Part shown: positions 1,694 through 38,936 of the stretch, piece after piece
Layout of the letters: the number at the start of each line of letters is the position of its first letter
Numbering within the stretch: the first letter of the stretch is position 1
Assembly (NCBI GenBank): GCA_947646735.1
Contig: CANTFK010000983.1
Location: 971,568-1,035,567 of the forward strand
Reading direction: 5' to 3'
DNA length: 64,000 bases
Origin: Peronospora farinosa
Taxonomy: Eukaryota; Oomycota; Peronosporomycetes; Peronosporales; Peronosporaceae
Position numbers and translations under genes: made by a program
The notes under the pieces: generated by a model
What the model saw: the letters and a program-made list of their open reading frames with translations, nothing else
The model's database searches: none
What the model was told of the DNA's origin: nothing

Positions 1694-2992
1694 TGTGGTA
1701 AAGTCGATTAGAGAATTTTGGCTAAGTCCATACAATAATTTTCTCGATAAATCCGGAGCCGAGTTGCTGGGATTTTTCTCTTTAACGGTTGAATCCCTTT
1801 CCCATAACGGCGAGAGTCTTTCCCATAACGGTCGGATTCCTTTCTCATAAAGTTCGGATCCCTTTCTCATAACGGTTGTATCCCTCTCCCCCATTAAGTC
1901 ACTTACTAAAATGACTTATTGGGTGTGATGAAGTCGATCTCAATTCATGGACGATCGAATGGAAAAGCACCGTTGATCCAAGATTGTTTATTTGTTTGTT
2001 CAATAAAACGAATGAAGAAGGGATCAATGGTATCGAAGACGATGATGATATGGATTGAAACATACTTAAAGTGAAGACACATGGCATGATCACATTTCCG
2101 AATTATATTGAATAATCATGGAATAGGACACCGTTTGGATTATACTGGATTCCAGTATCGGTTGATCCAATTAGATGGATTGATTATAAAAGGATTATAC
2201 GTGAATGTGGAATAGTGGAATTTCGCAAAATGTGGATCGCGACTGTGGAGAAGCGAATGAGCATTATTTCGCAAAGTGTGATCACATGTTTTCGGTTAAG
2301 TCCGAAATGGCCAATATTGATGAGTCACGATCTCGCAGAAAGGTTTCGAGATGACGTCAAATGGGATGGAAAACAGTGAATGGTGTAGTTTGCAGTTCTA
2401 TGTGGGGTCAAATATGGCCTAGAAACTACGCTATTGCGATCTCCAGTATTTCCTATGGCGATCCGCGTGAACGCGATCGCTAAGAAGGAGGATGGGTACA
2501 TCCAAGTATGTGGAAGACGGTCTGGTGTGGATCACGTCGCTATGGAGGACTGGAATGGTGGACATGACATGTCACATAGATGGACCATCTCACATGACCT
2601 GAGAAACGGTGAAGAGGATAAGTCGTGATCCGGCGGATCGCGATCCGATGCTAATTATTAGTATCGCGATCCGATATTACTTATTAGTATCGCGATCCGA
2701 TACTAAAATAAGTACCGCGATCCGATACTAATTATTTAGTAACGCGATCCGATACTAATTATTTAGTACCGCGATCCGATACTAAAATACGTACCGCGAT
2801 TCGATACAAAAATGGTATTAGATCCAAGCGAGGTAGCGATCCAGATCGTGGCGATATTGGAGTGGACCACATTACAAGATCTGATTTCTCCGAAAGGGCG
2901 ATACGTGGCAATAGATCCTGAGCTACAGATAGTCAAGATCATAGGTTTTGGTATTTGATTGGTTAATATTAACACAGAGCTCAATTTGCTTC
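1694..2992 (+). repeat. Gypsy A 5' LTR, left part
   Basis: Aligned with 18210-19485 of the 3' LTR. It stops exactly at the GCTTC duplication (2988-2992) made by element B; the rest of the same LTR continues at 11162. It contains the CGCGATCCG tandem array. Confidence 0.92.
2635..2815 (+). repeat. Tandem array of quasi-palindromic CGCGATCCG units in the LTR
   Basis: About seven imperfect copies, 25-31 bp apart, of a unit built on agtatcgcgatccgatacta followed by an AT-rich spacer (attatt or aaaata). The core is nearly self-complementary. The 3' LTR copy of the array (19146-19305) has fewer units and different spacers, which explains most of the LTR length difference. Confidence 0.85.
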
Positions 2993-3452
2993 TGTAACGG
3001 GGCACCCTCCGACTATACTGATTACAGTATAGTCTACTTTCACTGATTACAGTGAAAGCAGGTGCCTCAATTACCTCTCTTACACAAGAGGCAGAGGAAG
3101 CTTTACTTCTAAACAAACGCTTAGAAGTAGAGGAAAAGAAAACTGTATTTAATATAGTTAACTATCTTAATAAAACTAATCTGTTATAACCTATGTTAAC
3201 TATATTAAACTACAACTATGTATGTTGACGACTTGCCCTCCACTCATTGCGCGCGTCCATCGGTCATTGGTCAGCGCGTTGGTTGATATGATGGCCCATA
3301 TCAACCAATAAGATGGCATCTCCAACTTCAAGGAGATCTACGAAAAATATTATAAGAAAAGGTAATATTGTCAAAATATTATTAGTTATAATAATATTTT
3401 ATTGACACTTCATATAAGTGTCAATATTATGTAACGGGCTCGCCCCGTTACA
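2993..3452 (-). repeat. Gypsy B 3' LTR (minus orientation)
   Basis: 460 bp, two differences from 10697-11156. Internal stem-loops: gactatact/agtatagtc and ctttcact/agtgaaag, both with the loop gattac; ggttgatatg/catatcaacc; ttgacactt/aagtgtcaa. The two ends pair as TGTAACGGG and CCCGTTACA. Confidence 0.93.
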
Positions 3453-3466
3453 TCACCCCCCCCCTC
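3453..3466 (-). promoter_or_regulatory. Gypsy B polypurine tract
   Basis: Reads tcacccccccccct on the plus strand, i.e. an A/G-only tract on the minus strand abutting the 3' LTR. That is where the plus-strand primer of a minus-oriented element belongs. Confidence 0.75.
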
Positions 3467-3530
3467 AACCAACAGTCACATTAGTGAATGTTTAGTGACT
3501 ATGGGAAAAGAGAACTTGTTGAATTTTCTT

Positions 3531-3543
3531 TCATTCAACAATT
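3531..3543 (+). promoter_or_regulatory. Initiator-like core promoter of the antisense gene
   Basis: TCATTCAACAATT closely fits the oomycete core promoter (Inr plus flanking region, consensus TCATTYYNCAWTT). It lies on the plus strand 6 bases before ATG 3549 and about 80 bases inside the LTR. It points in the antisense direction relative to gag-pol. Confidence 0.5.
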
Positions 3544-3548
3544 ACGCT

Positions 3549-4476
3549 ATGACAAAGTCAATGCGCGTCGCTGCTAAGGCAGCCAAGAGCTAGGCTGCAC
3601 GCCTGTGTGCAGCCGCTACTGAGGCTTCACAGCCTCAGCCAGTAGACACTAATGTGTCTGCTGGAAGTCAACATCAGCCTGCAACGCCTGTTGCAGGTTC
3701 ACGTAGCGCTTCGCCACGTGAAGATGTTGACCCAGAGTTAGTCGTTGACTACTCTGGTGAGTCGGATGACGCATCCGGCTCAAAGTCACCTGTGTCACTC
3801 CCGGGCTCTCCCCGGGGTGATACCTCGTCGTCTAATGCTACGAAGAGGGATCGTGGTACATTGAGTGAATCAATGTACCGTGAAATGTTCGGGTCGTCTG
3901 ATTCATCAGACGACCCGCCAAACGAGTCGAAGGATAGTGACTCGGGTGGGGACCGTAAGGGTGATGTCAGTGCTTCTACTGACATCAATGCTCATATTGT
4001 TTGTACTTCTGTTGACACTAATGCTCGTGGTGTCGGTACTTCTGTTGACACCACGCAGGAGGCTTTAGACCGCAACGTAATGCGTCTTGCTCCTGATCGC
4101 AAGCCATGGATGCTACCTAAGCATCTGCTTGATCGTTGGTCTGGAAAGACCAACGAACGGTTCCCCATACCGTTGTTTGATGCGTCAAAGCTTCATGGCC
4201 TTGACGCCAGTGCGAAGAACTTTCGCACTGAGAACGATTATTACATCGATGTGTTCCTTGAACATCGATGGTCATGGCCCACACAAGAAGCGTGAGGCCG
4301 ACGCGTTCCTCCAATCTTGGAACGCGTTTATTACCAACGTTTTAAACGTTGGGAAAGAGGCTTGGTTTCAAAGACTTTTTGCTAGCCGCAATAAGTTTGA
4401 GAAACGAAGTACGTCCGGTGCATGCTATCGTTTGCATCGGTTATCTAGAGAGGCAGGCCTGTTATGCATCTCTTAG
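3549..4476 (+). pseudogene. Antisense accessory gene of Gypsy B, N-terminal and central part (broken)
   Basis: Plus-strand frame from ATG 3549, with an in-frame TAG near 3591, then open to 4295; a second frame continues the similarity-free but protein-like sequence to 4476. The N-terminal part is Ser/Asp/Pro-rich and acidic. The central part is globular and rich in aromatic residues (W, F, Y). No sense ORF covers 3549-4509, so this frame is not a shadow of pol there. Function unknown; I recognise no family. It appears to continue, with at least one frameshift, into the coiled-coil frame at 4854-5270. Antisense ORFs between pol and the 3' LTR are known in some plant Gypsy elements. Confidence 0.5.
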
Positions 4477-4509
4477 GGCGACCCATGACCGGGGTGCCTA
4501 AGCACATCG

Positions 4510-7248
4510 TCAAGATCGCCTAAGGAGGCGTACCTCCTTACTGAGCCCTGGTGGAGGGCTCGCATCTCTTCTGAAATGCGTGAAGGGATTGCTACTTTGC
4601 AATCCCTTTACGAGCGCGCTGGGCGCTCGTTTCCGATGGTCCTTCTTCACCATCGGGTGTATCTTGTCGTACTGTTCGACAAGGCCGGGAACGTCGGCCA
4701 TCAGTTGGGCCCGAGGTTCCCAGCTATCCGCCGAAGGCGGATAGCCACGCCACCGGACGAGATAACTCGTCCGACGTCCCTTCACCTCGCGATGCTTTAG
4801 TAAGCGTTCCACGAGGAAGCGCTTCCCACCATGGGAGTCCACCAGCGGATGCGGTGGTGGAGGAAAACCCCTGTCCGATTCTTTTATCGTACTTGGCTGC
4901 TGAGTTAGACGGGTTTGCCCGTGTAACTCGTGAGCTACGTTGTGATGTTGATCACGAACGGGATAAGCGTCGCCGCTTAGAGGACATTGTGCGACAGCTT
5001 GGGTTTGACCATGAGAAGTCTCGGACAAACAATGCTGTCGCACTATTGGAGAATGAACGGCGGCTTCATTCTTTAAGTAACGAGCTGGCGACAGCTCGTC
5101 AGAAGATTGTCCAATATCATGGGACGATCTCATCTCTACACTACCAGATATCGAATCTGGTTCGTGACAACAAGAATCTGAAGGGGATTCTTGAGAATAA
5201 CGGCTATCTTCGTCGTTCGAAGAAGCCGCGTACTGAAAGTACGGACGAAGACGTCCCACGTAAAACGTAGGATGCGTACGCATCCTGCGTGGCAACTCGA
5301 TCGTGTATGCGTTGCCTAGGCGGCGCAATACACGGAACGGGCCGATGTACTTGGGCAACAATTTATTGCTGCATAATTTAGTCACTATGTGTTTAGGTAG
5401 GTTTACTGTTGACAGTAAAACTAAATCACCTTCAATAAATGTTTGAGCATTTGCCCTTCCATTATTGTCTGCGTTTCGCTTTTGCTTATCCACCGCTTCT
5501 GCGATGGAGTCTTGCACGAAACGGAATACCGCTTCACGAGTCAGCAGGAAATCCTCAGCTGACTCGTTGCTTTTGGCTGCAGTACATTGTGAATGCACTG
5601 CAGAGATATCGGTTACTAATTCAGCGAGAACATTACTGTTCTCACTTGTGATAACTCGAACGATGCTGATATCTTCAGCATCGTTGTCAGTAAGAGCGTC
5701 ATCGCTCTTACTTTCTTCCTCTTCACCGAAGTCGAATGGTACGACTTCAGTTACTTTCGCGTCGACCATAACGTCGTCGCGTGATGAGCAAGAGCCAGAT
5801 TGGTTCTCGCTCGAGCGAGTTCCTCCCCCCCTTGAATTAGAGTCACCTTCTACTAAGGTGGGGACACGTGGATGGCGAAGGCCATTCACGTAGAACGGTG
5901 TATGCGTCGTGGACGCATGCACGGAGTTGTTGATGGCGAATTCGACCATCGACAAGAACTCACTCCAACTCGTAAACGAGTGGACGTACCCTCGAAGAAT
6001 CTCTTCGAGGACGCGATTGGCGCGTTCAGTCTGACCATCGGTTTCTGGATGGTCAGAAGTAGACATTGTGAGCCGTGTTTGGAACACGGAACGCCAAAAC
6101 TCAGCCGTGAACCGGGGGTCCCTATCGGACACAAGTTCACGGGGTAAACCGTGCAATCGAAAGATTGTATCGATTAACACTCGAGCACAGCCCTCTGCTG
6201 TGATCGAATCAGGTACAGCAACAAGATGTACCATCTTGCTGAACCTGTCCACAAACACGAGAATACCATTATTTCCGTGAGCGTCTTTGGAAAACCCAAA
6301 GACGAAGTCCATTGATACGGACTCCCAGCACTCTGTCAGAACAGGTAGAGGCTGCAATGGTGCGCGGAGTGAAGGACTAGGCCTCACTCGTTGACACACC
6401 TCGCAAGCACGCACGTACTTGCGCACAAACTTATACTGGCGTGGCCAGTAAAAGTCGCGACTGACCGTGAGGTAAGTCTTCTCACGGCCGCGATGCCCAC
6501 TTATTGGTGCATCGTGACATTCAAACATGATCCGTAACCTGAGATCATGTTGTGGCGGTACAACGACACGAGGCGTGTCGTTGTTGATGGCTGTGTAGTA
6601 CAGTAAGCCGTCCCGCTGGGTGTATCGATCTAGAAAAGATCGATACATGGCAGGCAAGCGCTTCTTAGCTTGCGTGTATGGGTCCTTGAGGTACTCCATC
6701 AGGCGTACAAGATCATTATCTTGTGCGCATGCCATTCTAATGTCGTCGAGTAAGCTCGACGACAAGACGCTGGTACTCAGCGTGGCGACAGTGGTGTTCA
6801 CATCACTGTCGGATTGCACAATCGGCTCTAGGTCAGGCCGACGTGAAAGAGCATCGGCGACGACGTTAAGTCGTCCCGGCTTATACTCCACGGAGAAGTT
6901 GTACTCCGCGAAGAACGACAACCATCTCGCCATTCGTTGCGAGAGGTGTGGACTATTTACAGCCGTGCGTAGTGACACATGGTCTGTATATACAATGAAC
7001 GGTCTATCTCCTAAGAGATAGACGCGAAACTTAGCCAGTGCATACTTCATGGCAAGGAGTTCCTTGTCATGCACCGGGTAATTGCGCTCAGCCGGTTGCA
7101 GCTGACGCGATTGATAACAGACGATACGCTCGGCGCCGTCTGTATCATATTGCATCAGTGCGCAGCCGATTGCAAAATCACTGGCGTCACAGACCACATG
7201 AAATGGTCTGTCTTGATCGGCAATCGTTAATACTGGCGATTGCATCAA
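4510..7248 (-). CDS. Gypsy B pol: RNase H, integrase, chromodomain
   Basis: 912 codons, open from the RT/RNase H junction (7248, no ATG; follows a 1-nt frameshift). RNase H (residues about 1-140) has the VCDASDFAIG motif. Integrase has an HHCC zinc site (H-GH then CEVC) at about 250-300 and a D,D,E core (SMDF; SDRDPRF; TERANRVLEE) at about 320-440. A GPY/F-like module and a long low-complexity linker follow. The chromodomain (about 795-850; FLVERLLKHR, YLVRWRGY, SWEP) is expected to direct integration to marked chromatin. The linker is antisense to the coiled-coil ORF at 4854-5270. Confidence 0.85.
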   Translation of the reverse strand: MMQSPVLTIADQDRPFHVVCDASDFAIGCALMQYDTDGAERIVCYQSRQLQPAERNYPVHDKELLAMKYALAKFRVYLLGDRPFIVYTDHVSLRTAVNSPHLSQRMARWLSFFAEYNFSVEYKPGRLNVVADALSRRPDLEPIVQSDSDVNTTVATLSTSVLSSSLLDDIRMACAQDNDLVRLMEYLKDPYTQAKKRLPAMYRSFLDRYTQRDGLLYYTAINNDTPRVVVPPQHDLRLRIMFECHDAPISGHRGREKTYLTVSRDFYWPRQYKFVRKYVRACEVCQRVRPSPSLRAPLQPLPVLTECWESVSMDFVFGFSKDAHGNNGILVFVDRFSKMVHLVAVPDSITAEGCARVLIDTIFRLHGLPRELVSDRDPRFTAEFWRSVFQTRLTMSTSDHPETDGQTERANRVLEEILRGYVHSFTSWSEFLSMVEFAINNSVHASTTHTPFYVNGLRHPRVPTLVEGDSNSRGGGTRSSENQSGSCSSRDDVMVDAKVTEVVPFDFGEEEESKSDDALTDNDAEDISIVRVITSENSNVLAELVTDISAVHSQCTAAKSNESAEDFLLTREAVFRFVQDSIAEAVDKQKRNADNNGRANAQTFIEGDLVLLSTVNLPKHIVTKLCSNKLLPKYIGPFRVLRRLGNAYTIELPRRMRTHPTFYVGRLRPYFQYAASSNDEDSRYSQESPSDSCCHEPDSISGSVEMRSSHDIGQSSDELSPARYLKNEAAVHSPIVRQHCLSETSHGQTQAVAQCPLSGDAYPVRDQHHNVAHELHGQTRLTQQPSTIKESDRGFPPPPHPLVDSHGGKRFLVERLLKHREVKGRRTSYLVRWRGYPPSADSWEPRAQLMADVPGLVEQYDKIHPMVKKDHRKRAPSALVKGLQSSNPFTHFRRDASPPPGLSKEVRLLRRS
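4854..5270 (+). CDS. Antisense accessory gene of Gypsy B, coiled-coil C-terminal part
   Basis: 138 codons, plus strand, opposite the pol linker. Residues about 12-115 form a heptad-patterned coiled coil (RRLEDIVRQL, LENERRLHSLSNELA, ISNLVRDNKNL). The C-terminus is basic (RRSKKPRTE) and nuclear-signal-like. The frame reads open upstream of the GTG/ATG start region, so it is probably the tail of the longer antisense gene beginning at 3549, separated by frame breaks between 4295 and 4850. The part opposite the chromodomain (4576-4800) is the least certain. Function unknown; a self-associating nuclear factor is only a guess. Confidence 0.45.
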   Translation: MVEENPCPILLSYLAAELDGFARVTRELRCDVDHERDKRRRLEDIVRQLGFDHEKSRTNNAVALLENERRLHSLSNELATARQKIVQYHGTISSLHYQISNLVRDNKNLKGILENNGYLRRSKKPRTESTDEDVPRKT

Positions 7249-8208
7249 GCTTTGCTTAATCGTTCAAAGGAACGCTGGCAGTCAGCGTTCCAATTCCACT
7301 TTACATTTTTCTTGAGTAAACAAGAAAGATGTACTGTCATTTCGGCGTAGTTGCGCGAGTACTTGTGCAAGTACGCCGCTAGCCCAAGGAACTTCCTTAG
7401 TCCCTTGACATCGACTGGCACTGGCCAGTCGGTGATCGCCTTGATCTTTTCTGGATCAGGGCGTACGCCGTTCTTTCCGACGATGAACCCAAGAAGTGGT
7501 ATTTCACTAGCTGCGAATATACACTTCTTGAGGTTGGCGTACAACTTATGCTCGCGCATAAGTGTAAGAACCTTACGGACGTGGAGTCTATGGACTTCCA
7601 CGTCTGTTTTCCCGTCCATAGCTCGACTATGGACGAACACATCATCGAAGTAACTCGGTGCGAATTCGCGCACCGGTCTCAATACATCTATTGAATGTGG
7701 CTGGTGCATTACTAAGCCCTTGCGGCATCACCAACCATTCCCAGAGCATACCACTGGTAGTGCTCACTGCTGTGTACGGGATGTCCCGTTCACGCATTAG
7801 GATCTGATAGAAACCATCCATCAGATCCATGGACGAAAAGATGGTACTCTTAGACATACCATCTATGATTACTTCCTTTCTCGGTATCGGCGTTTGCGCC
7901 GGTATCGTTGCAGCGTTCAACTTATTGAACGCGTGCACTATCCGCCACCCTCCTGTGTCCTTGCGCACACAGAAGGTCGGAGAGCTGTGAGGTGAGGTTG
8001 ACTCCCTCACATGACCCGCTGCTAGGCGATCGGCAAAGAACTTGTCGATCGCCTCGACCTGTTCCCGAGGCAGTGGCCACTGCTTCATGACACAATATTT
8101 TGTGCCAGGAACAAGGTCGATCTCGTGTCGAGTACCTTTATCCTTAGGCAACTCGCACGGAACGGATTCAGGGAATACATCCTTGAATTCGACCAAATCC
8201 TTATACAA
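7245..8208 (-). pseudogene. Gypsy B reverse transcriptase (frameshifted)
   Basis: Two overlapping minus frames. 7642-8208 holds RT fingers and palm (HEIDLVPGT; MDLMDGFYQI; MPQGLSNAPATF). 7245-7709 continues with the YFDDVFVHSR catalytic box and the thumb/connection (LLGFIVGKNGVRPDPEK; LRKFLGLAAYLHKY). A frameshift near 7690 and another near 7248 separate them from each other and from RNase H. The catalytic YFDD is intact. Confidence 0.82.
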
Positions 8209-8214
8209 AGGATT

Positions 8215-9310
8215 TTACTTCAGCGACTCCCAGGATTGCGATGTATATCGTTCAATCCGAGTCTTCTCATCAAGGACACTTTCGTCTATTGATGAGCTGC
8301 TGAGAACCCGTTCGTTCTCGGCAAAAACTGTTGCTGACCGAATGTCAGTCATGTACTCGTCCTCTGCGACGAGCAAACAGATCTGCTTGACTTTGCCACT
8401 ACGCAGATCACGCAAGAACCTTTTAGGTTCTAGCGTAGGCAACTGAGTTATCTTCGAAGTTAACTTCGGAGGCGCGATCAGATCAAGCGTATAAGCGCCT
8501 ACGTTTGATCCGTCATTAACCAAGACGTTCAACGTCTCGGTTACTTCCTGGGGACTTATTCCCTCAGGGCATTGGGGACTTATTCCCTCAGTGATTATTT
8601 CCTGGGGACTTATTCCCGCAGGCTCGATGAAACTTGTTCCATCGACTTCCTCTAGCTGTGGTGGCGCAACCACAGCGAGATCCTCTACGATCAACTCTCC
8701 AGTTGATCTAGGATTACCGTGTTGCCGCTTCTGGGCAACCGATTTACTCTTCGGTGAATGCTGCCCTCTAGGCGAGCATTCATGTCCCGATCCACTCGAC
8801 TTATTCGAGTGGTGTACCTTCGGCGCTGCCTGTGCTTGTGCACAGCCGCCGGCAGCTTGCTCCACAGCGTGACTGTCTGTCACGCTGAGTTCTTGTGCAG
8901 TCGTACTAACGGCCGAACCACAATTGAGGCCATCACACTCACTCGTAGAACATTCACACGCTTTTGAACGCTCCAAGACGTTCATCAGATGGCCATCTGA
9001 TGAACAAGCGGCAGGCATCTTCACGGTTCGATGCTGCCAGCTGACCCATGGCTCGTACCTTCTGAGCCATGGTAATCCTAGGATGACATCAAATTTGTCA
9101 TCCAGATCAAGTACGATAAAATCCTCATCGTACTTTTTGCCTTCAAGCGTGTAGTGAATTCCCACTACACGTTTCTTTACTGTTACGGATGCGCCCGTTG
9201 CAAGGCGCACCGTCATCCTCGTTGGAGGGGTCTCGCGCTCAACATATATTGAGCCTACGATCATCTAGCGATTGGCGTCGAACAAAGTTGTTCGAAGCCC
9301 CACAATCAAC
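8215..9310 (-). pseudogene. Gypsy B aspartic protease and linker (broken)
   Basis: The active-site motif DCGAS is encoded at 9307-9293 in one frame. The rest of the protease (VILGLPWLRRYEPWVSW) lies in another frame, 8215-9264, so there is a frameshift near 9260. A low-complexity linker with three copies of a GISPQE-type repeat (8545-8635) follows. An in-frame TAA (8217-8215) separates this frame from RT; the frame continues open beyond it. Confidence 0.75.
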
Positions 9311-9464
9311 TATGACATGTTCTTTGTCACTTCGATCTTCAATGTGATGAGGGATACCTCATCACTGGGAGCGGCAACACACAGTGACTGTGTGTTGGGA
9401 GCAACCTTCGTCAAGAGTCCCGCGAACTCTCTTGACGTTGCTGGATCAGTAGGACGCTCCGCCC

Positions 9465-10649
9465 CTACTGACCCCGACCGTTTTTTGATGGTCCACCACG
9501 TTGTGGCGATTTCGCAGCAACGTGGGACCCACGTCTCTGGCCCTTCTTGGCAGACGGTCGATCGTCACTCCCAGTGTTACGAGACACTGGGCGTGGGGCA
9601 CTACACTCATAAGCGTAGTGGCCCAACTTCTGACTGCGATTGCACTTTTGCAATCGCTTGTACCCTGGAGAGCGAGGTCGCTCGCTCTCTACATAGGAGA
9701 GGTCCATTGGTTCTGGACCTCCGCCCTCCTGTCGTCTCGGTGGACGATAGGATCCCGAGTGGACGTGAGCCTGCTGTAGGCTAAAGTCCTCCTGTTCCGC
9801 TGCAGAGATCGCTTGATCCAGCGATTCTAGTTCCAAGCGGAACAGGTGGGTCTTGACAGGACCATATGTCAGACCCTTGATGAACACAGTAACCTGCGTG
9901 TGTTCATCGATGGGGTTCAGTACGATACAACTAACGAGGTATCGCACGTGTTGGACGTAAGCGTGTATATCACGCTTACCCTGTTTCAAATCCAGGAGCT
10001 CAGCCCGAGCCCTGAATTCGGCGCGAGGCGGTTCAAACGTGTGTTTGAGCCGCGCCTTGAAGACGTCATACGTTGGGAAAACGTATGGGTCGTGCAGTTT
10101 GCGCCTTAAGGCCCAAGCTTTGGCACGTCCTGCCAAGTTCGACATGGCGAACTTGACCTTCATCGCATTGTCATCGATGCGACGAGCCTCAATGGCATCG
10201 TCGAGCTCGACGAACCATCTCAACAAGGAGTCGCTTTCGACTGCCTTGTACTTGGAGACATCAATCTTCAAGGACTCGGGTCGACGTGCATACGTCGACC
10301 CGGCAGCAACAGCACTAGCCTGCTGTTGTCTCAACAGTTCAGACTGTTGAGCACCCTGCTGCATCAACAAGTCAGCTTGTTGAGCGCCTTGTTCTCTCAA
10401 CAGTTCAACCTGTTGAGAACCTTGCTTCTCTAGCAAGGTGAGTTTCTTTACAACTTCGTCAAGTTCATGTTGTATGAACTTAGCAATGGTTGCATGTTGG
10501 TCGTCTCCGCTAAGAGAGAGCAACATGGCACCAACGGTAGGGTTGCCGATGGTTTCAGCCATACGCTGAACCGCATTCCATTCGAGGTCACTCAAATGGC
10601 GGAAATCATCACGCGTTGCGTGATGACGTTCATCACCCGCTGATTTCAT
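9465..10649 (-). CDS. Gypsy B gag, zinc knuckle damaged
   Basis: Likely starts at ATG 10649 (an upstream in-frame GTG exists at 10682). A coiled N-terminal segment has a tandem LLREQGAQQAD-type repeat of about 3.5 copies (10310-10440). It is followed by a capsid-like helical domain (LRWFVELDDAIEARR; VYPTYD-like). The C-terminal knuckle reads C-x2-S-x4-H-x4-C (CNRSQKLGHYAYEC), so the second Cys is Ser. A basic RG-rich tail follows. It packages element RNA; with the knuckle altered, binding may be weakened. Confidence 0.8.
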   Translation of the reverse strand: MKSAGDERHHATRDDFRHLSDLEWNAVQRMAETIGNPTVGAMLLSLSGDDQHATIAKFIQHELDEVVKKLTLLEKQGSQQVELLREQGAQQADLLMQQGAQQSELLRQQQASAVAAGSTYARRPESLKIDVSKYKAVESDSLLRWFVELDDAIEARRIDDNAMKVKFAMSNLAGRAKAWALRRKLHDPYVFPTYDVFKARLKHTFEPPRAEFRARAELLDLKQGKRDIHAYVQHVRYLVSCIVLNPIDEHTQVTVFIKGLTYGPVKTHLFRLELESLDQAISAAEQEDFSLQQAHVHSGSYRPPRRQEGGGPEPMDLSYVESERPRSPGYKRLQKCNRSQKLGHYAYECSAPRPVSRNTGSDDRPSAKKGQRRGSHVAAKSPQRGGPSKNGRGQ

Positions 10650-10680
10650 AGCGGGTGGTGCGGTGGTCGCTGAACGGACC

Positions 10681-10694
10681 ACGAAGTGCTACCA
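10681..10694 (-). promoter_or_regulatory. Gypsy B primer-binding site
   Basis: The plus strand reads acgaagtgctacca, like a tRNA 3' acceptor end with CCA. On the minus strand it begins TGGTAGCAC two bases after the 5' LTR, the expected position for a tRNA primer site. The tRNA identity is not fixed. Confidence 0.65.
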
Positions 10695-10696
10695 GG

Positions 10697-11156
10697 TGTA
10701 ACGGGGCACCCTCCGACTATACTGATTACAGTATAGTCTACTTTCACTGATTACAGTGAAAGCAGGTGCCTCAATTACCTCTCTTACACAAGAGGCAGAG
10801 GAAGCTTTACTTCTAAACAAACGCTTAGAAGTAGAGGAAAAGAAAACTGTATTTAATATAGTTAACTATCTTAATAAAACTAATCTGTTATAACCTATGT
10901 TAACTATATTAAACTACAACTATGTATGTTGACGACTTGCCCTCCACTCATTGCGCGCGTCCATCGGTCATTGGTCAGCGCGTTGGTTGATATGATGGCC
11001 CATATCAACCAATAAGATGGCATCTCCAACTTCAAGGAGATCTACGAAAAATATTATAAGAAAAGGTAATATTGTCAAAATATTATTAGTTATAATAATA
11101 TTTTATTGACACTTCATGTAAGTGTCAATATTATGTAACGGGCTCGCCCCATTACA
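10697..11156 (-). repeat. Gypsy B 5' LTR (minus orientation)
   Basis: 460 bp; differs from 2993-3452 at two sites (the hairpin loop in ttgacactt-catgt, and CATTACA versus CGTTACA at the end). Followed by the GCTTC target duplication at 11157-11161. Confidence 0.93.
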
Positions 11157-11161
11157 GCTTC

Positions 11162-14917: not shown

Positions 14918-16723
14918 GTGATCGAAGGTGAAAGTGAACAACTAGCGCCATCTTCAAGGGTGATCAATGCGATCCGAGGGATGTCAAATGTCGATCACGC
15001 GCAAGGGCCTTGGGGTGAAGAAAATTACACTTACAATAACTACACACAGGAATGTATGGAGCGTGATTCGACAACTAATGACCGTGATCTGGCTGACCTG
15101 GTACTTAATGACCGCGATCTGGACGATCCGGTAGTTAATGACCGCGATCTGGCCGATCCGGTAGTTGATGACCGCGATCTGGCCGATCCGGTAGTTGATG
15201 ACCGCGACTTGGCCGATCTGGTAAGTAAGGACCGCGATCTGGCCGATCTGGTAAGTAAGGACCGCGATCTGGCCGATCCGGTAATTAATGACCGCGATCC
15301 GGCCTATCTGTATCGTGGTCTGCGAGAACAAGAGCAAGCTAGTGATATTACGACTATCATCGACGAATGTAATTTAGCCGGACGAAGTGTAAAGATGAAG
15401 CCTAAAGACTCGATGTATTATCACGAGAGTGGGGAATTGTATGCCGAAGACGTGGATCATCATATGGCTGTCTTGCCTGAGATTGTGTCATCCACCGAAG
15501 AAGTTACGATTGATGATATCCAACTGAGCGATCCGGGAGTTCCTCTAACCAAAGACCAAGAAGGTCTACGGAAATTGATTTGGGTGAAACGACACTTACT
15601 CATCGGCAAAGGAAATGCGCTTCCTCCTGCAGCTCGAGGAGCAGTATGTGATATCGATGTTGGTGGAGCACACCCCCGATCGCACAACGAGTACGACCGG
15701 TCGCTCCTAAATTTCGCGAGAAGCTAGCTGACCTCATCAAAGGATTACTATCAGCCAGGATTATCCAGCCGTCAACATCACATGGACTTCGCCGATTGTG
15801 GTAATTATGAAAAAGAATAGTGTCGACATTCGTTTGTGTATTGACTATCGGCGGGTGAATCAACTCACGAGATTAATGGTGTATCCTATGCCGCTGTTAA
15901 GCGAATTATTGCAAGATATAAATAAGCTATGTGGTATTGTTCGTTGGATATGGCCAGTGGATTTTGGGTCGTGGATATGACCGAGCGAGCAAGGATGATT
16001 TCTGCTTTTATCACGCCGTCAGGCTTATTCGAGTGGTTACGAATGCCGTTTGGGTTAAAAAACGCTCCGCAGATTTACCAACGTCTAATTGATAATGCAC
16101 TGTATGTATACCTCAAGATCGGTACGGATCCAAACGCAATTGCCACAGGATCACTCGACTCCGCTGATACGGTAACGGGATCGCTAAAGCTGGTGGATGT
16201 ATTCACTGAAGGCGAACCGGATACTAGCCAGAAGCCATCTGTGCTCGGCCGAAGGTCATATATTGATGACATACTAATTCCAGCAACATCGTGGGCCTCC
16301 TTATATGATAAGGTAAAGCGATTGTTAGAAGTATGCAATGAATGGAATTTGTCGATCAGTCTCGCTAAAGGTTTTTGGGGACGACGTAAGGTGGACTACA
16401 TGGGTCATCAAGTCTCACTTGCAGGAATAGAAGCTCATCTAAAGGATTTGGGATCGCTGGTGAATATTATGGTCCCAAAAACGTTGCAATCGATGCAATC
16501 GTTTCTGGGAAGCTTGAATTACTATAGTCGATTTGTCGAAGACTTTGTGATTTATGCGTCAGTGCTATATGAATTACGGGAAGCAGATTTCCACGAAATC
16601 CGCTGTTCTGACAAGATGAATGCATCGGATTCGAATATCGCCACCAGGAATGATTCGGATCAAAATTTTGATGTTGGGGACGACCCAGATCCAGAAGAAC
16701 GGACTCGATGGGAAAAGCGATGA
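14918..16723 (+). pseudogene. Gypsy A reverse transcriptase (several frame breaks)
   Basis: 14918-15727 is a linker containing the DRDLADPVV repeat, then the RT N-terminus (LPPAARGAVCDIDV). The frame shifts near 15650. Fingers and palm follow in 15798-15980 (IRLCIDYRRVNQLT), and then in 15929-16723 (WVVDMTERARMISAFITPSG; MPFGLKNAPQIYQRLIDNAL; YIDDILIPATSW, where YIDD is the catalytic box). An acidic insert sits between LKIG and YIDD, as in related oomycete elements. Confidence 0.82.
15079..15310 (+). repeat. 30-bp minisatellite encoding a decapeptide repeat
   Basis: About eight copies of gaccgcgatctggccgatcc plus a variable tail, encoding DRDLADPVVN/D/K-type decapeptides. Unit length is a multiple of three, so the frame is kept. 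Each unit carries two GATC sites. The minus strand shows a mirror ORF that is only a shadow. Confidence 0.9.
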
Positions 16724-18209: not shown

Positions 18210-20022
18210 TGTGGTAAAGTCGATTAGAGAATTTTGACTAAGTCCATACAATAATTTTCTCGATAAATCCGGAGCCGAGTTGCTGGGATTTTTCTCTTTA
18301 ACGGTTGAATCCCTTTCCCATAACGGCGAGAGTCCTTTCCCATAACGGTCGGATTCCTTTCTCATAAAGTTCGGATCCCTTTCTCATAACGGTTGTATCC
18401 CTCTCCCCCATTAAGTCACTTACTAAAATGACTTATTGGGTGTGATGAAGTCGATCTCAATTCATGGACGATCGAATGGAAAAGCACCGTTGATCCAAGA
18501 TTGTTTATTTGTTTGTTCAATAAAACGAATGAAGAAGGGATCAATGGTATCGAAGACGATGATGATATGGATTGAAACATACTTAAGGTGAAGACACATG
18601 GCATGATCACATTTCCGAATTATATTGAATAATCATGGAATAGGACACCGTTTGGATTATACTGGATTCCAGTATCGGTTGATCCAATTAGATGGATTGA
18701 TTATAAAAGGATTATACGTGAATGTGGAATAGTGGAATTTCGCAAAATGTGGATCGCGACTGTGGAGAAGCGAATGAGCATTATTTCGCAAAGTGTGATC
18801 ACATGTTTTCGGTTAAGTCCGAAATGGCCAATATTGATGAGTCACGATCTCGCAGAAAGGTTTCGAGATGACGTCAAATGGGATGGAAAACAGTGAATGG
18901 TGTAGTTTGCAGTTCTATGTGGGGTCAAATATGGCCTAGAAACTACGCTATTGCGATCTCCAGTATTTCCTATGGCGATCCGCGTGAACGCGATCGCTAA
19001 GAAGGAGGATGGGTACATCCAAGTATGTGGAAGACGGTCTGGTGTGGATCACGTCGCTATGGAGGACTGGAATGGTGGACATGACATGTCACATAGATGG
19101 ACCATCTCACATGACCTGAGAAACGGTGAAGAGGATAAGTCGTGATCCGGCGGATCGCGATCCGATGCTAATTATTAGTATCGCGATCCGATATTAATTA
19201 TTAGTATCGCGATCCGATACTAATTATTTAGTACCGCGATCCGATACTAATTATTTAGTACCGCGATCCGATACTAATTATTAGTACCGCGATCCGATAC
19301 TAAAATGGTATTAGATCCGAGCAAGGTAGCGATCCAGATCGCGGCGATATTGGAGTGGACCACATTACAAGATCTGATTTCTCCGAAAGGGCGATACGTG
19401 GCAATAGATCCTGAGCTACAGATAGTCAAGATCATAGGTTTTGGTATTTGATTGGTTAATATTAACACAGAGCTCAATTTGCTTCTAAGTACACGTGTAG
19501 AATTCTCTTCCGGGCTGGATTCTTTGGCCTCCCGACGTCTCAAGGAAGTCTACATACTACACAGGTCATATCCCTGGATTGTTTGGCCAGGGATTACAAG
19601 AACTCTCAAAACAAACAACTTCCCCTGCGATTGGACGCAGCACAACAAGAAAAGGACAAGGTACAAGATCGCGAGACGGCTCAAGTGGTCAGAAAATCAA
19701 GTATATCAAGTGGATCAAGTATCTACATTTTTGGACAAGGCGATCTCAAGAGAGATCAGGGCGACTCAAATAGAGCACCCCAAGAACAACTGCGATCGTG
19801 TGAGGAATTCCACTCGATCGTCCCCCACCTATCCCTAACACAATCAAGTTCAACATCGACTCAAGTCTACCGAGAAGAGAGCAACCCACCCTACCGACGG
19901 GTACACAAGGTGAGGAAGGCTATACACACGGAATCGGGGTACCCCCTCCGTTAGTTGGTCGTCCGGGCGCCAATGGAGAGTTAGGATCGCATCAGCAATT
20001 TTGCAAATCCCGCTCCGCCGCA
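18210..20022 (+). repeat. Gypsy A 3' LTR
   Basis: 1813 bp, uninterrupted, TGTGGTAAAG...CCGCCGCA, preceded by a purine-rich tract (aggggacga, 18200-18208). Followed by GTTT (20023-20026), the target duplication. Confidence 0.92.
19146..19305 (+). repeat. Tandem CGCGATCCG array, 3' LTR copy
   Basis: About six units, allelic to 2635-2815 but one unit shorter and with homogenised attattta spacers, as expected from slippage. Confidence 0.85.
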
Positions 20023-35536: not shown

Positions 35537-37375
35537 GTAGTGACTGATCGCTGAGCTGGTGACGTGGGAGATGAAGGAGGAAGGAGGGAGGAAGGGGGAT
35601 TAATAAATGGGGATTGGGGGTTGACGGACGAAGTACCTTGCACTATCATCACCAGGTGTTGTGGCTCTCCAAGGACTGGGGACAAAGACATTTCAAATAG
35701 CGTTATAGAAGGTTTCCAAGCGAAAAGATGAGGGATGTGCTACGGTATGCATCAACTGTATGGTCAGACAGAGAGAAGCGCAAAACATCCGATCTTGATT
35801 CCATGTCGAAAGCCAAGGAAGCGCTAGCTTGACTTGGTGTAGGCACGGCCACACTTGGTTGGATCCAGCATTCGTTTTAGCAAAAGTCGACGGGTGTTTA
35901 AGGAACCGGCACAGTACTTGCTTTTTACAGTGTCATGGGGTTGTTCTCATTTAGTGATGCAAAGCTCCACGAAAGCAAATGATAGTCATACTTTTGCACA
36001 TGGAAGCTGCACCTGTTCGCTGCTTCTTGTTTTGTTGTAGTATTGATAGACGTTTCATCTTTAGATGTATCTATGCACCTTGTCCGACTGTAGTCATCGA
36101 GAGAAACTCTCTCGTATGGACGCAGCCATGTCTCAGGCGCAGTAAGCTCTGTGAATTCGGTGGTAACGTGATGCTGACTTGCACGTGCTTCAATCCTGTG
36201 AATGATTGAAGATGTGGGAATGCAGGCTTTACTTTTTTTCGCGTCGATTGATATACAGAGAGAGGTTGTAGATTGCTTGAAGCTCGAGGGGAGAATGGCT
36301 CTGTCGAGGAAAACATTGAAGGTTATGGGGTCTCTTACCATTTTCGTGAACAAATTTCGCATTACTTGCTACGCATGATACGATTACGGCTTGTCAAGAT
36401 GGTGGTAGTCCTGCATTGAGTAAGGGGATGCTTGACTAGGATCGAGATACATGAGAATGGCCCATTGATCTGGGCTGGGTACCATTTGAATCGTAGCAGC
36501 GTCAGGCACTTTTCAATTGGATTCGTACGGTCTACAACCTCTTCTCGTTCCCGTTTCGGATTTTTACGAGTTCGTCTGGGCAAAGATATTGATCGATACA
36601 CACTCAACATATGAGCTACTACGGACAAGGTGTTACAATTAAGCGGTTCGGGATTATGGCCAAAGCCCCAACTTATCCACTACAAGTAAGCAAACTCCCG
36701 TCCAAGTAACGGAGATAGCCGAAAAATAGTCATGCCGAAGAGCAAGAAGCCTCAAGTGAGGCATGTGGAGAAAGAAAAGTGTCCTGGTATGATGATGGAG
36801 AATGAGCTCAAAAAGAGCAATGACTACTGTAGCATTATCTGTCGACTCAACACATATCCGTGTTTGAAAGAAGAGACTCGGGCATGCGATAGAATGGATC
36901 CAGATGGAGGCGTGTCATCTCGTAACCTGCACACAAGATACAACTGGTAGTCAACGCTGCGGCATAATGGCATGCAAGCGTCTGCGTCTTTCCTTGCAAA
37001 TCACGTTTGGACATTCGGTAGCGATCCCACCATGAAAGAAAAGAGGCGTGTGCTACGATTCGTAGCACGCCTAGTATCGTACGTAGCCTACCATGCTTGA
37101 CGAGACGGAGATTGTAAGAGCTTTGTGGGATGTGATGAAAGCTCTGTAGATGCGAGATGTTTTTCACACGAGATGGCGTCAGGATGAAAATGGGTCTAAA
37201 CGAGAAGGAAGAGCGAGTGTTTTCATTATTTCCTGTGTCCATGAGGGAAGACGTGAGAAACTGAAGGCATTTAGAAGAACGCGAGACCTGATTTGAGGAC
37301 ATAACACTGTGCAATTGTCAATACCCGACGCTATACGACAGTACTGCTAATCGTGACGAACAAATCACTAGTAAG
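35537..37375. other. Intergenic, no supported gene
   Basis: About 1.8 kb with only short, unconvincing frames. Contains a near-perfect hairpin at 37050-37068 (gtgctacga-t-tcgtagcac). Promoters of the transporter (left) and the DHHC gene (right) should lie here. Confidence 0.45.
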
Positions 37376-38495
37376 ATGCAGTCGCGTCGTCTGTGCCAAG
37401 CCAGCCACGTGTTGTGGTTCGTATGGGACCCTCCAGGCATCGCGATCGCCTTGTTCGCTGGCCTCCTTGTCTTGGGTTTGTTGGTGGCGGTACTCATGTC
37501 CATCTCGGAATGGGTGGGGCTCCTGTCGCCAATGGGAATGACAGAGAGCATCTGGTTTACAGGACTCTTTGGTATGTGTCTCTGGAGCCACGTTGTGGTG
37601 GTTACTAGCAACCCGGGCACGGTACCGTCCAAGCTCAAGGGAATAATGCCATTTGTAGAGATTGAGAAGGAAAGAACCAAGGATGACGATGAGATGGAAG
37701 AAGTGGAGGAGGAAATCTCACTCAATGAATTCGAAGAATGTGAAGACGATGGCTCGCTTCTCTTCTACTGCGACGAGTGTGAGATCTACCGTCCACTCAG
37801 GTACGTTGCAAGGTGAACGTGCAACTGAGAGACTGAGCTGAAATCTATCTGACCTGTGAGTTGCAATTTTCCAGAGCTCTGCATTGTCACACTTGTAACC
37901 GATGCATTGTCTTACAAGATCATCACTGGTAAGTGGGACACTGTCAACTACAAGAAGCTCCGTTTTCTAGTGTATGAGGACGGCTGACTAATGAACTGAA
38001 ATGTACTCTTGTATTCTGTGCAGTCCCTGGGTGAATAATTGCGTAGGAATTGGTAACCTCAAGGCCTTTTTGTTGTTGCTCTTGTACGTCACAGTTACAA
38101 GTGTTCAAGTGGCATTGCTAGTGATGATGCAGTACATTATGTGCACACGTGGCAAATATTCCTGTGGATTTGAGACAGACCAATTTCCAGGCAAATTTGG
38201 CGGTTGGATTCTGGCTGCAGCTGCTGTCTTTGGACTATTTTGTTCCCTTATGTTGGCTATGGAGCTCTTTAATATTTATCAAGATCCACTATTTACACTA
38301 ATTGCTGGTCAACTTGCAGCTCGTCGTGGTGGAGACAAGTCCAAGTCGACGCTGGAACGTCATCTAAGTGTCATTTGTGGGACGGATGGTATGAGAACGT
38401 CCTGGTGTTTTCCTCCGCCTGAACGACGTTCACTGCATGATGAGGAGATTATACAGGGGTTCCGATGTCAGGAGGACGATGGAGGGATCTGTTAA
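37376..38495 (+). CDS. DHHC palmitoyltransferase
   Basis: Exons 37376-37800, 37875-37928, 38024-38495; introns 74 and 95 bp; 316 aa. Attaches palmitate to Cys of membrane proteins. Two TM segments (about 20-75) precede an acidic cytosolic loop. The zinc-binding CRD is CDECEIYRPLR, HCHTCNRCIVLQ, DHHCPWVNNCVG, with the catalytic DHHC split by intron 2 (C of DHHC on the junction). Two further TMs follow (LKAFLLLLLYVTVTSV; FGGWILAAAAVFGLF). The short middle exon carries the CRD core. Confidence 0.92.
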
Positions 38496-38936
38496 CGTTT
38501 GCGAGAGAATGCACAAAGTAACACAGTAGAATGTCCTTGGTTAAGTATACGTTGACGACGGTGTTACTTCATGAAGTAGGTTCTTGTAGTTCGACTTTTT
38601 TAGTTTACTTCAAGGTGTCCTACGATTACTACAATTTGCATGTAGGCCCTGGTAGGACGAAACACAGCTGGGATCCTGAAACACCTACCCACATCCTTAC
38701 TACAAGCATATTCCTATTATGATGCATATACAATCAGATTATGTTTATACTTTAATCGCTATCTTGGTAATCCTCCGTTAAATAATAAACCTATTGTTTA
38801 CAGCATCCGTTTTAGTCGTCTCATTTTTCGACCATTTCTAGACGTAATCAGTGTCTCCACAGCCCTATTTTCTCCATCTGCATTTGTATTTTTTCCTCCA
38901 GACAGTAATAACAACTCAAAACAGAGGCCTCAATCC
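38496..38936. other. Intergenic with an initiator-like site
   Basis: No gene. 38821-38838 (tcatttttcgaccatttc) resembles the oomycete Inr plus flanking element, about 100 bp before the lipid kinase ATG. Confidence 0.45.

What the first reader, a model, noticed from the sequence alone, without database searches (positions are those of the whole stretch)
2993..11156. Gypsy B is saturated with short perfect stem-loops along its whole length
Reading the element shows perfect inverted repeats every few dozen bases, in gag, pol, the antisense region and the LTRs. Hand-checked examples (arm length, loop): 3855-3879 (10,5), 3891-3916 (11,4), 3963-3986 (9,6), 4134-4155 (9,4), 6621-6647 (11,5), 6741-6764 (10,4), 10277-10302 (11,4), 8980-9005 (a 26-bp perfect palindrome), 5269-5286 (18-bp perfect palindrome inside a 26-bp one). 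I found well over 20 with arms of 8 bp or more and loops up to 12. Chance predicts about one in 8 kb of random sequence. Elements A and Copia and the host genes do not look like this. Possible explanations: selection for a highly structured genomic RNA (packaging, hiding from silencing, blocking host factors), or repeated fold-back templated copying by the element's RT. Either would be a new property for a retroelement as far as I know.
Basis: partly seen in the sequence, partly recalled or inferred. Interest (0 to 1): 0.93.

Follow-up and report, generated by a model that had tools for sequence, protein, structure and literature searches.

The report
Retrotransposons built out of tiny hairpins
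A jumping gene in a downy-mildew genome is written almost end to end as short fold-back hairpins, far more than chance or its protein code can explain, and its sister families show the same habit with differently shaped hairpins.

Summary
Element B (2993-11156) holds 92 perfect stems (arm >=8, loop <=12); dinucleotide shuffles give about 0.5 per 4 kb. Codon-preserving shuffles rule out the protein code: pol frame 24 vs 0.8, gag 18 vs 0.6, protease frame 10 vs 0.5. Excess folding energy (MFED) in these frames is 35-51% on either strand; a quoted record for vertebrate RNA viruses is 23.4%. All 20 other B copies fetched are stem-rich. Four related Gypsy families in this genome (Peronospora farinosa, inferred) also show it, each with its own geometry: F2/F3 mainly 7-10 bp perfect stems, F4 4-5 bp stems with 3-4 nt loops, F5 short helices broken by single-nucleotide bulges (39 vs 2.6 expected). 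Copia (14 loci) lacks it; the highest of 42 loci from other genomes has 18.5%. I favour selection for genome-wide folding, possibly a family-specific shape code. Templated fold-back copying stays a serious rival: a few copies carry exactly inverted hairpin loops. The acting strand is unresolved.

The parts
2993..11156 (-). Element B, Ty3/Gypsy chromovirus, nested in what I infer to be the LTR of element A; 92 perfect stems of arm >=8, loop <=12
2988..2992 (.). target-site duplication GCTTC, left
11157..11161 (.). target-site duplication GCTTC, right
10697..11156 (-). 5' LTR (sense), 460 bp; 32 perfect 8-pair matches vs 0.7 expected (overlapping counts)
   Evidence: LTRs differ at 2 of 460
2993..3452 (-). 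3' LTR (sense)
10688..10694 (-). probable primer-binding site TGGTAGC (motif recalled, not tested)
9468..10688 (-). gag frame (Retrotrans_gag); 18 stems vs 0.6 in codon shuffles
8218..9264 (-). protease frame (RVP_2) with long linker; 10 stems vs 0.5
7264..8217 (-). reverse transcriptase region, frame broken in this copy
4513..7263 (-). RNase H - integrase - SH3 - chromodomain frame, 917 aa; 24 stems vs 0.8
3594..4295 (+). antisense open frame, homologous to annotated P. effusa proteins; shorter here than in four other copies; 12 stems in this frame with 60 bp on each side
3456..3464 (-). probable polypurine tract, nine G (motif recalled, not tested)
3890..3917 (.). stem-loop, arm 13, loop 2
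8980..9005 (.). 26-bp perfect palindrome
6621..6647 (.). stem-loop, arm 11, loop 5, inside the pol frame
10277..10302 (.). stem-loop, arm 11, loop 4, inside gag
3279..3308 (.). stem-loop, arm 12, loop 6, in LTR (repeated at 10983-11012)
5659..5685 (.). stem-loop, arm 11, loop 5, inside the pol frame

Best explanation
B is a chromovirus whose whole sequence has been rewritten, largely within the freedom that its proteins leave, so that its single-stranded form folds into a string of local hairpins. The most likely cause is natural selection for that folding, a retroelement counterpart of genome-scale ordered RNA structure. Each related family in the genome has settled on its own hairpin geometry, which suggests that shape rather than stability alone is read. 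The proposed reader is the element's own machinery, such as Gag during packaging, so that each family compacts and recognises its own RNA among many co-resident relatives. Shown: the hairpins, their excess over codon-preserving controls, their presence in all B copies fetched, their making by substitution, and the family-specific geometry. Inferred: that selection made them, that RNA is the folding molecule, and who reads them.
For: Codon-shuffle excess in three frames of B and MFED 35-51%; 88-89% of 135 windows of 120 nt at z < -2 on either strand. Same in non-coding parts: LTR 32/0.7 and 3' region 28/0.7 perfect 8-pair matches. F5 reaches MFED 27-41% (L055 and L059, 2 of 12 loci tested) with few perfect long stems, through 1-nt-bulged helices: 92 bulges vs 30 in shuffled folds, 39 vs 2.6 in pol and 33 vs 2.5 upstream by sequence alone. 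F4: arm 5 with loop 3-4, 28 vs 4.0. F2 and F3: excess mainly at arms 7-10. Six of 21 F2 stems sit at the same place in F3, three of them with both-sided base-pair changes. F5 and F4 near-stems favour sense G.U over A.C (28 vs 12, background about 2 each; 49 vs 30, background 24.5 vs 19.9). B residues in arms are not rare among 114 homologues (3/147 vs 20/765). Perfect pairs are broken among 20 B copies (window's included) less often than background rates predict (163 vs 214); of 7 cells changed on both sides, 4 still pair, though 5 of the 7 lie in one copy, L095, where the alignment is doubtful.
Against: In B, F2 and F3 stems with one wobble do not favour sense G.U (31 vs 36, 4 vs 13, 6 vs 11); interior mismatches of B near-stems are even more often sense A.C (16 vs 4 strict, 22 vs 14 loose), which is G.U on the other strand. 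Arms are not GC-rich and no loop sequence recurs more than twice. Both strands fold equally well in B; in F4 the antisense folds better. Both-sided changes between F2 and F3 are few overall (10 of 173 pairs). Within families only 0 of 365 (B, eight copies), 3 of 140 (F2) and 3 of 100 (F3) pairs show two Watson-Crick types; transversions that break pairs are hardly reduced (70 vs 78.5). Residues in arms are less conserved than outside (0.56 and 0.59 vs 0.67, one-sided shift test 0.04). The geometries overlap: B also has a bulged-stem excess (22 vs 4.3) and an arm-5 excess (18 vs 5.2), and F4's upstream part has some 8-pair stems (7 vs 1.6). Exactly inverted loops in single copies show that fold-back events do happen on these hairpins.
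Confidence: 0.45

Rival explanations
1. Templated fold-back copying. During reverse transcription the nascent strand snaps back and copies its own arm, turning chance quasi-palindromes into perfect ones; repeated over many cycles this fills the element with hairpins without any function (self-maintaining palindromes).
For: Perfect Watson-Crick stems without GC or loop preference; loop sizes fall off from 4 nt as fold-back kinetics would; near-stem mismatches are mainly transitions of either kind (31 vs 36); dense in LTRs and the antisense region; arms less conserved in protein. Single copies with the loop exactly reverse-complemented between intact arms: one each in B (L095), F2 (L010) and F3 (L049) among 21, 26 and 19 copies, none in F4 (5), F5 (12) or Copia (9), and one more in B seen where only four copies overlap. 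Several point mutations at once are an unlikely cause; a strand switch inside the hairpin is a likely one. Precedent: quasi-palindrome mutation and nematomorph coding palindromes.
Against: F5 is filled with bulged stems across open frames, which copying of one arm should not make without shifting the frame, and showed no loop inversion. Arm polarity is inconsistent: at DNA level the 3' arm of B is the more diverged from four families (0.554 vs 0.606), at protein level the 5' arm is the more diverged from the nearest homologues (0.71 vs 0.84, P0008). Where a B copy alone has a perfect stem, one base makes the difference, not a block in one arm (the inverted-loop copy apart). Mismatch repairs are not in clear excess (16 vs 11.7). 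Near-perfect stems are plentiful, not binary. Copia in the same genome lacks the pattern.
Confidence: 0.32
2. Shielding: the folded form hides the element's RNA from small-RNA silencing or dsRNA sensing; geometry differs by family only because any folding that stays below a length limit will do.
For: B stems stop at 13 bp; F5 has few helices of 8 bp or more (3 vs 7 in shuffles); virus GORS has been proposed to shield RNA and its pairing positions are poorly conserved, as here.
Against: Does not by itself predict classes such as arm 5 with loop 3-4 in F4 or bulges in preference to 1x1 mismatches in F5. No small-RNA data were available.
Confidence: 0.18
3. Artefact or chance: low complexity, codon usage, assembly or amplification error.
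For: None found.
Against: Codon- and dinucleotide-preserving controls; stem-rich copies on many contigs, the same centres in eight compared; a protein of an independently sequenced species, P. effusa P0004, is 98.8% identical to the frame of copy L005.
Confidence: 0.01

Closest known systems
Genome-scale ordered RNA structure (GORS) of positive-strand RNA viruses (PMC7642675, passages read)
   Same: Genome-wide excess folding energy from consecutive stem-loops in coding sequence; pairing positions poorly conserved between relatives
   Different: Here in an LTR retrotransposon; 35-51% in B's frames against about 15% in SARS-CoV-2, 7.5-10.7% in HCV and a stated record of 23.4% (longer fragments and another shuffle there); short stereotyped hairpins of family-specific geometry; equal on both strands in B
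Coding palindromes of nematomorph mitochondria (PMC6649704, abstract and passages read)
   Same: Inverted repeats inside conserved protein genes, dynamic between species, arms kept complementary
   Different: Theirs reach 284 bp with nearly binary perfect identity; here about 90 per element, arms up to 13, many near-perfect, also in non-coding parts and in a mobile element
Dispersed RNA packaging signals of small RNA viruses (PMC6281560, PMC7612645, search listing only)
   Same: Many dispersed stem-loops along the genome
   Different: A loop motif read by the core protein is described for hepatitis B virus; no recurring loop found here
Quasi-palindrome template-switch mutation (PMC3820800, search listing only)
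   Same: Makes perfect inverted repeats out of imperfect ones; a few inverted loops here look like strand switches
   Different: Predicts one-sided blocks and no bulged grammar

Membership tests
Ty3/Gypsy chromovirus | LTRs, target duplication, gag, protease, RNase H, integrase, chromodomain | tested here: met
   for B; RT frame broken in this copy; chromodomain not tested in F2-F5
Genome-scale ordered RNA structure | Folding energy below sequence-order controls over most of the genome | tested here: met
Genome-scale ordered RNA structure | Pairing positions poorly conserved between relatives | tested here: met
   3 of 39 B stems have a stem at the same centre in F2 or F3; F2 and F3 share 6 of 21
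Genome-scale ordered RNA structure | Structure forms in the genomic RNA itself | not testable with these tools
   no probing or RNA data; strand tests disagree between families
Genome-scale ordered RNA structure | Genome of a positive-strand RNA virus | tested here: not met
   LTR retrotransposon
Nematomorph-type coding palindromes | Binary perfect identity, no excess of near-perfect repeats | tested here: not met
   near-perfect stems abundant
Nematomorph-type coding palindromes | Perfect inverted repeats inside conserved coding sequence | tested here: met
Dispersed packaging signals | Common recognition motif in loops | tested here: not met
   no loop sequence occurs more than twice among the listed loops of 76 stems (inspection, no formal motif test)
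Dispersed packaging signals | Capsid protein binds the stem-loops | not testable with these tools
   needs binding assay
Template-switch quasi-palindromes | One arm overwritten from the other, with consistent polarity | tested here: inconclusive
   searches point opposite ways
Template-switch quasi-palindromes | Excess of mismatch-to-match changes among copies | tested here: inconclusive
   16 vs 11.7 expected
Template-switch quasi-palindromes | Loop inversions between intact arms | tested here: met
   one copy each in B, F2 and F3; none in F4, F5, Copia; one more

The most novel reading that the evidence does not exclude
The hairpin geometry is a family-specific shape code: each co-resident Gypsy family writes its whole genome in one preferred kind of hairpin (perfect stems up to 13 bp, 7-10 bp, 4-5 bp with tri/tetraloop, or singly bulged), read by its own proteins to package or copy its own RNA and not that of its relatives.
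Probability: 0.22. Interest if true: 0.95.

Novelty: new variant of a known kind. Interest (0 to 1): 0.82.

Why it matters
If the folding is selected, it would extend genome-scale ordered structure from RNA viruses to LTR retrotransposons at about twice the strongest level quoted in the paper I read, in a genome where several related families can be compared side by side. Family-specific geometry would turn the open question of what genome-wide structure is for into a testable one: does each Gag, reverse transcriptase or host factor prefer its own family's hairpin shape? If instead it is templated copying, it would be the densest case of mutationally driven palindromes in coding DNA that I know of (recalled), caught with inverted loops as traces.

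Tried and rejected
Insertion of palindromic mini-elements: rejected, 28 of the 32 B stems (arm >=7, copy L005) that have aligned relatives align without gaps; seven have no aligned relative. Protein or codon usage as cause: rejected. Recurring loop or GC-rich stems: none seen. Known RNA family: none in Rfam at gathering scores. Ancestral or stemless B copies to date stem birth: none among the 12 lower-scoring copies fetched, which are 93.9-97.7% identical to L005 and stem-rich; only 62 of 4805 candidates were scored. Covariation among F5 copies: too young, 93.6-97.8% identical to L055. Arm polarity: contradictory. Relatives in viral contigs: none. Forty-two chromovirus-like loci in prokaryote genome records served as controls (the longest open frame of each, cut at 3 kb, was used and not checked to be pol). 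An excess of B-specific residue changes in arms against four families (12/54 vs 28/293) did not hold as rare residues against 114 homologues, though a milder measure did (8/73 vs 20/443, p 0.03). After the first attempt to file, a recheck showed inverted loops; one search tested them, and I lowered selection from 0.5 to 0.45 and raised copying from 0.25 to 0.32 for that reason.
Full report
Setting. The window lies in a 46.85-Mb eukaryote assembly. A contig of 681,134 bases has the same length as the contig listed for two Peronospora farinosa proteins (P0002; P0129), so I infer that species; no tool names it. Element B is coded on the minus strand: LTRs 2993-3452 and 10697-11156 differing at 2 of 460 bases, target duplication GCTTC, gag, protease, a broken RT region, and one 917-aa frame with RNase H, integrase, SH3 and chromodomain. 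It is a Ty3/Gypsy chromovirus inserted in what the repeats suggest is an LTR of element A.

The observation. Perfect stems of arm >=8 and loop <=12 number 92 in 8.16 kb; dinucleotide shuffles give 0.3-1.2 per 4 kb, and the 13 tiles without B hold 0-5. All nine hand-checked examples are there. Loops peak at 4-5 nt and fade by about 14. Against 200 codon-preserving shuffles: pol frame 24 vs 0.80 (largest 4), gag 18 vs 0.60 (largest 2), protease frame 10 vs 0.51 (largest 3); four host frames and A's gag hold 0-1. Excess folding energy (MFED) against codon shuffles, sense/antisense: 45/48% (pol), 44/39% (gag), 37/35% (protease frame) in the window copy (30 shuffles), 51/51% and 51/50% in copies L005 and L002 (12 shuffles). 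In 120-nt windows against dinucleotide shuffles B has 42.7/43.9%, with 88-89% of 135 windows at z < -2; host sequence 36001-44000 has 0.4/3.6%, A 7.0/9.0%, the Copia stretch 6.5/7.7%. The LTR has 48/86% and the 3' non-coding region 54/53%.

Copies. Twenty other B copies were fetched in part: L002-L008 and L062 (8.1-10.3 stems/kb) and L086-L097 (5.0-9.4/kb). In eight copies (window's included; mean pairwise identity 0.982) stem columns vary as much as others (0.063 vs 0.060), as expected of decay after insertion; 38 of 46 stem centres occur in six or more of the eight. In 20 copies (window's included, L062 not), perfect pairs are broken 163 times against 214 expected from background rates: sense A.C 49 vs 79, G.U 44 vs 57, other 70 vs 78.5; mismatched pairs are repaired 16 times against 11.7. 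Seven cells are changed on both sides, of which four still pair; five of the seven lie in L095, where the alignment is doubtful.

Relatives in the same genome. Clustering by similarity gave F2 (26 loci, mean 3.64 stems/kb), F3 (15, later 19 loci, 3.34/kb at first count), F4 (5 loci, 0-0.8/kb) and F5 (12 loci, 0.4-1.5/kb) besides B; representatives share 56-64% of residues with B where aligned. By codon shuffles F5 nevertheless has MFED 38.5/40.7% (L055) and 27/28% (L059), F4 12/23% (L051) and 8/13% (L048), F2 8-10/10-11% (L022, L023), F3 6-11/7-10% (L029, L041, L064); fourteen Copia loci lie between -4.6 and 5.0% in sense, with 0-2 stems each. Each family has a preferred geometry. F2 and F3 have their excess mainly at arms 7-10, with only a weak one at arm 5 (9 vs 4.5 and 12 vs 4.8 for loops 3-4); F4 has excess at arms 4-5 with loops 3-4 (arm 5: 16 vs 2.1 at loop 3, 12 vs 1.9 at loop 4) and few longer; B has excess from arm 5 upward. 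F5 is made of 3-5 bp helices interrupted by single-nucleotide bulges: 92 bulges in the sense fold vs about 30 in shuffled folds, 1x1 mismatch loops depleted, 13 vs 31. A count free of any energy model agrees: 4 bp + 1-nt bulge + 4 bp, 39 vs 2.6 in pol and 33 vs 2.5 upstream, mismatch versions 4 vs 1.1 and 2 vs 1.2. The classes overlap: B also has bulged stems (22 vs 4.3), F5 some perfect ones (5 vs 1.6), and F4's upstream part some 8-pair stems (7 vs 1.6) with MFED 31/36%.

Other genomes. Forty-two chromovirus-like loci found in prokaryote genome records, presumably eukaryotic contaminants, gave sense MFED from -5.3 to 18.5% (13 of 42 above 8%) and at most 6 stems of arm >=8 in the frame examined, against 50.7% and 28 for B. 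Modest ordered structure may thus be common in such elements; the level in B and F5 is not.

How the stems arose. In a codon alignment of one open copy each of B, F2, F3, F4 and F5, 28 of the 32 B stems with aligned relatives show no gap: they were made by substitution; seven more have no aligned relative. Most are private to a family. Six of 21 F2 stems sit at the same centre in F3, three of these with both-sided changes (four pairs, my count from the listing). Over all F2 stems both-sided paired changes number 10 of 173, not clearly above what divergence alone would give (rough estimate 7-8, not computed). Residues in B's arms are not rare among 114 homologues (3/147 vs 20/765) but less conserved (0.56 and 0.59 vs 0.67 outside; one-sided shift test 0.04).

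Which mechanism. For selection: the strong folding of F5 without long perfect arms, the family-specific classes, the retained stems between F2 and F3, the deficit of pair-breaking changes, and a sense G.U preference in F5 (28 vs 12; 76 vs 55 by a looser count) and F4 (49 vs 30). For templated fold-back copying: B, F2 and F3 near-stems show no such preference (31 vs 36, 4 vs 13, 6 vs 11; interior mismatches in B lean to sense A.C, 16 vs 4), arms are not GC-rich, no loop recurs more than twice and loop sizes fall off as fold-back would. Most telling, some single copies carry the loop exactly reverse-complemented between intact arms: L095 in B, L010 in F2, L049 in F3 (among 21, 26 and 19 copies), none in F4, F5 or Copia (5, 12, 9 copies), and one more B case where only four copies overlap. 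These look like strand switches inside the hairpin, during reverse transcription or later. The polarity test is contradictory. I give selection 0.45, copying 0.32, and treat packaging, self-recognition and shielding as functions not yet separable; both forces may act together. The antisense frame at 3594-4295 has homologues in P. effusa (83-87% identity for the three best) and in environmental contigs (56-86%, often over part of the length), and is longer in four other copies, so an antisense transcript is plausible and could be a second folding molecule (inference).

Known kinds. The nearest are genome-scale ordered RNA structure of RNA viruses (about 15% in SARS-CoV-2, 7.5-10.7% in HCV, record 23.4%; PMC7642675, passages read), which used longer fragments and another shuffling method, so the comparison is approximate; and coding palindromes of nematomorph mitochondria (PMC6649704, abstract and passages read). 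Five searches for a retroelement case (listings only) listed none in the held library, which lacks most subscription journals.

Noticed in passing
window 3594-4295 (+): An antisense frame between pol and the 3' LTR has annotated homologues in P. effusa (three best 236-375 aa, 83-87% identity) and in environmental contigs; the window copy is shorter than four others. The region carries 12-14 stems per 0.8 kb.
   Followed up: partly
L095, L010, L049: Single copies of B, F2 and F3 have one hairpin loop exactly reverse-complemented between intact arms, as a strand switch would leave it.
   Followed up: yes
L055, L098 (F5) and L051, L099 (F4): Two other Gypsy families have their own hairpin styles: single-nucleotide-bulged helices in F5, 4-5 bp micro-hairpins in F4.
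   Followed up: yes
window 2681-2812 and 19173-19304: A 27-bp tandem minisatellite sits in both copies of the inferred LTR of element A, next to where B inserted.
   Followed up: no
window 15035-15334: A 30-bp tandem repeat spanning 300 bp inside element A.
   Followed up: no
window 9618-9644 (-): The gag zinc knuckle of this copy is degenerate, while the P. effusa homologue P0004 keeps a canonical one.
   Followed up: partly
P0006 against B copies: A Peronospora matthiolae protein matches the best B copies at up to 79% over residues 1-370 but about 57% after that, an abrupt change that may mark recombination.
   Followed up: no
L100-L141: Forty-two chromovirus-like pieces lie in genome records labelled as bacteria or archaea, probably eukaryotic contamination; some show modest ordered structure (up to 18.5% MFED).
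   Followed up: partly
window 43119-45824 (+): A host frame of 902 aa joins an Arb2 domain, a FYVE finger and a protein kinase with its C-terminal domain.
   Followed up: no
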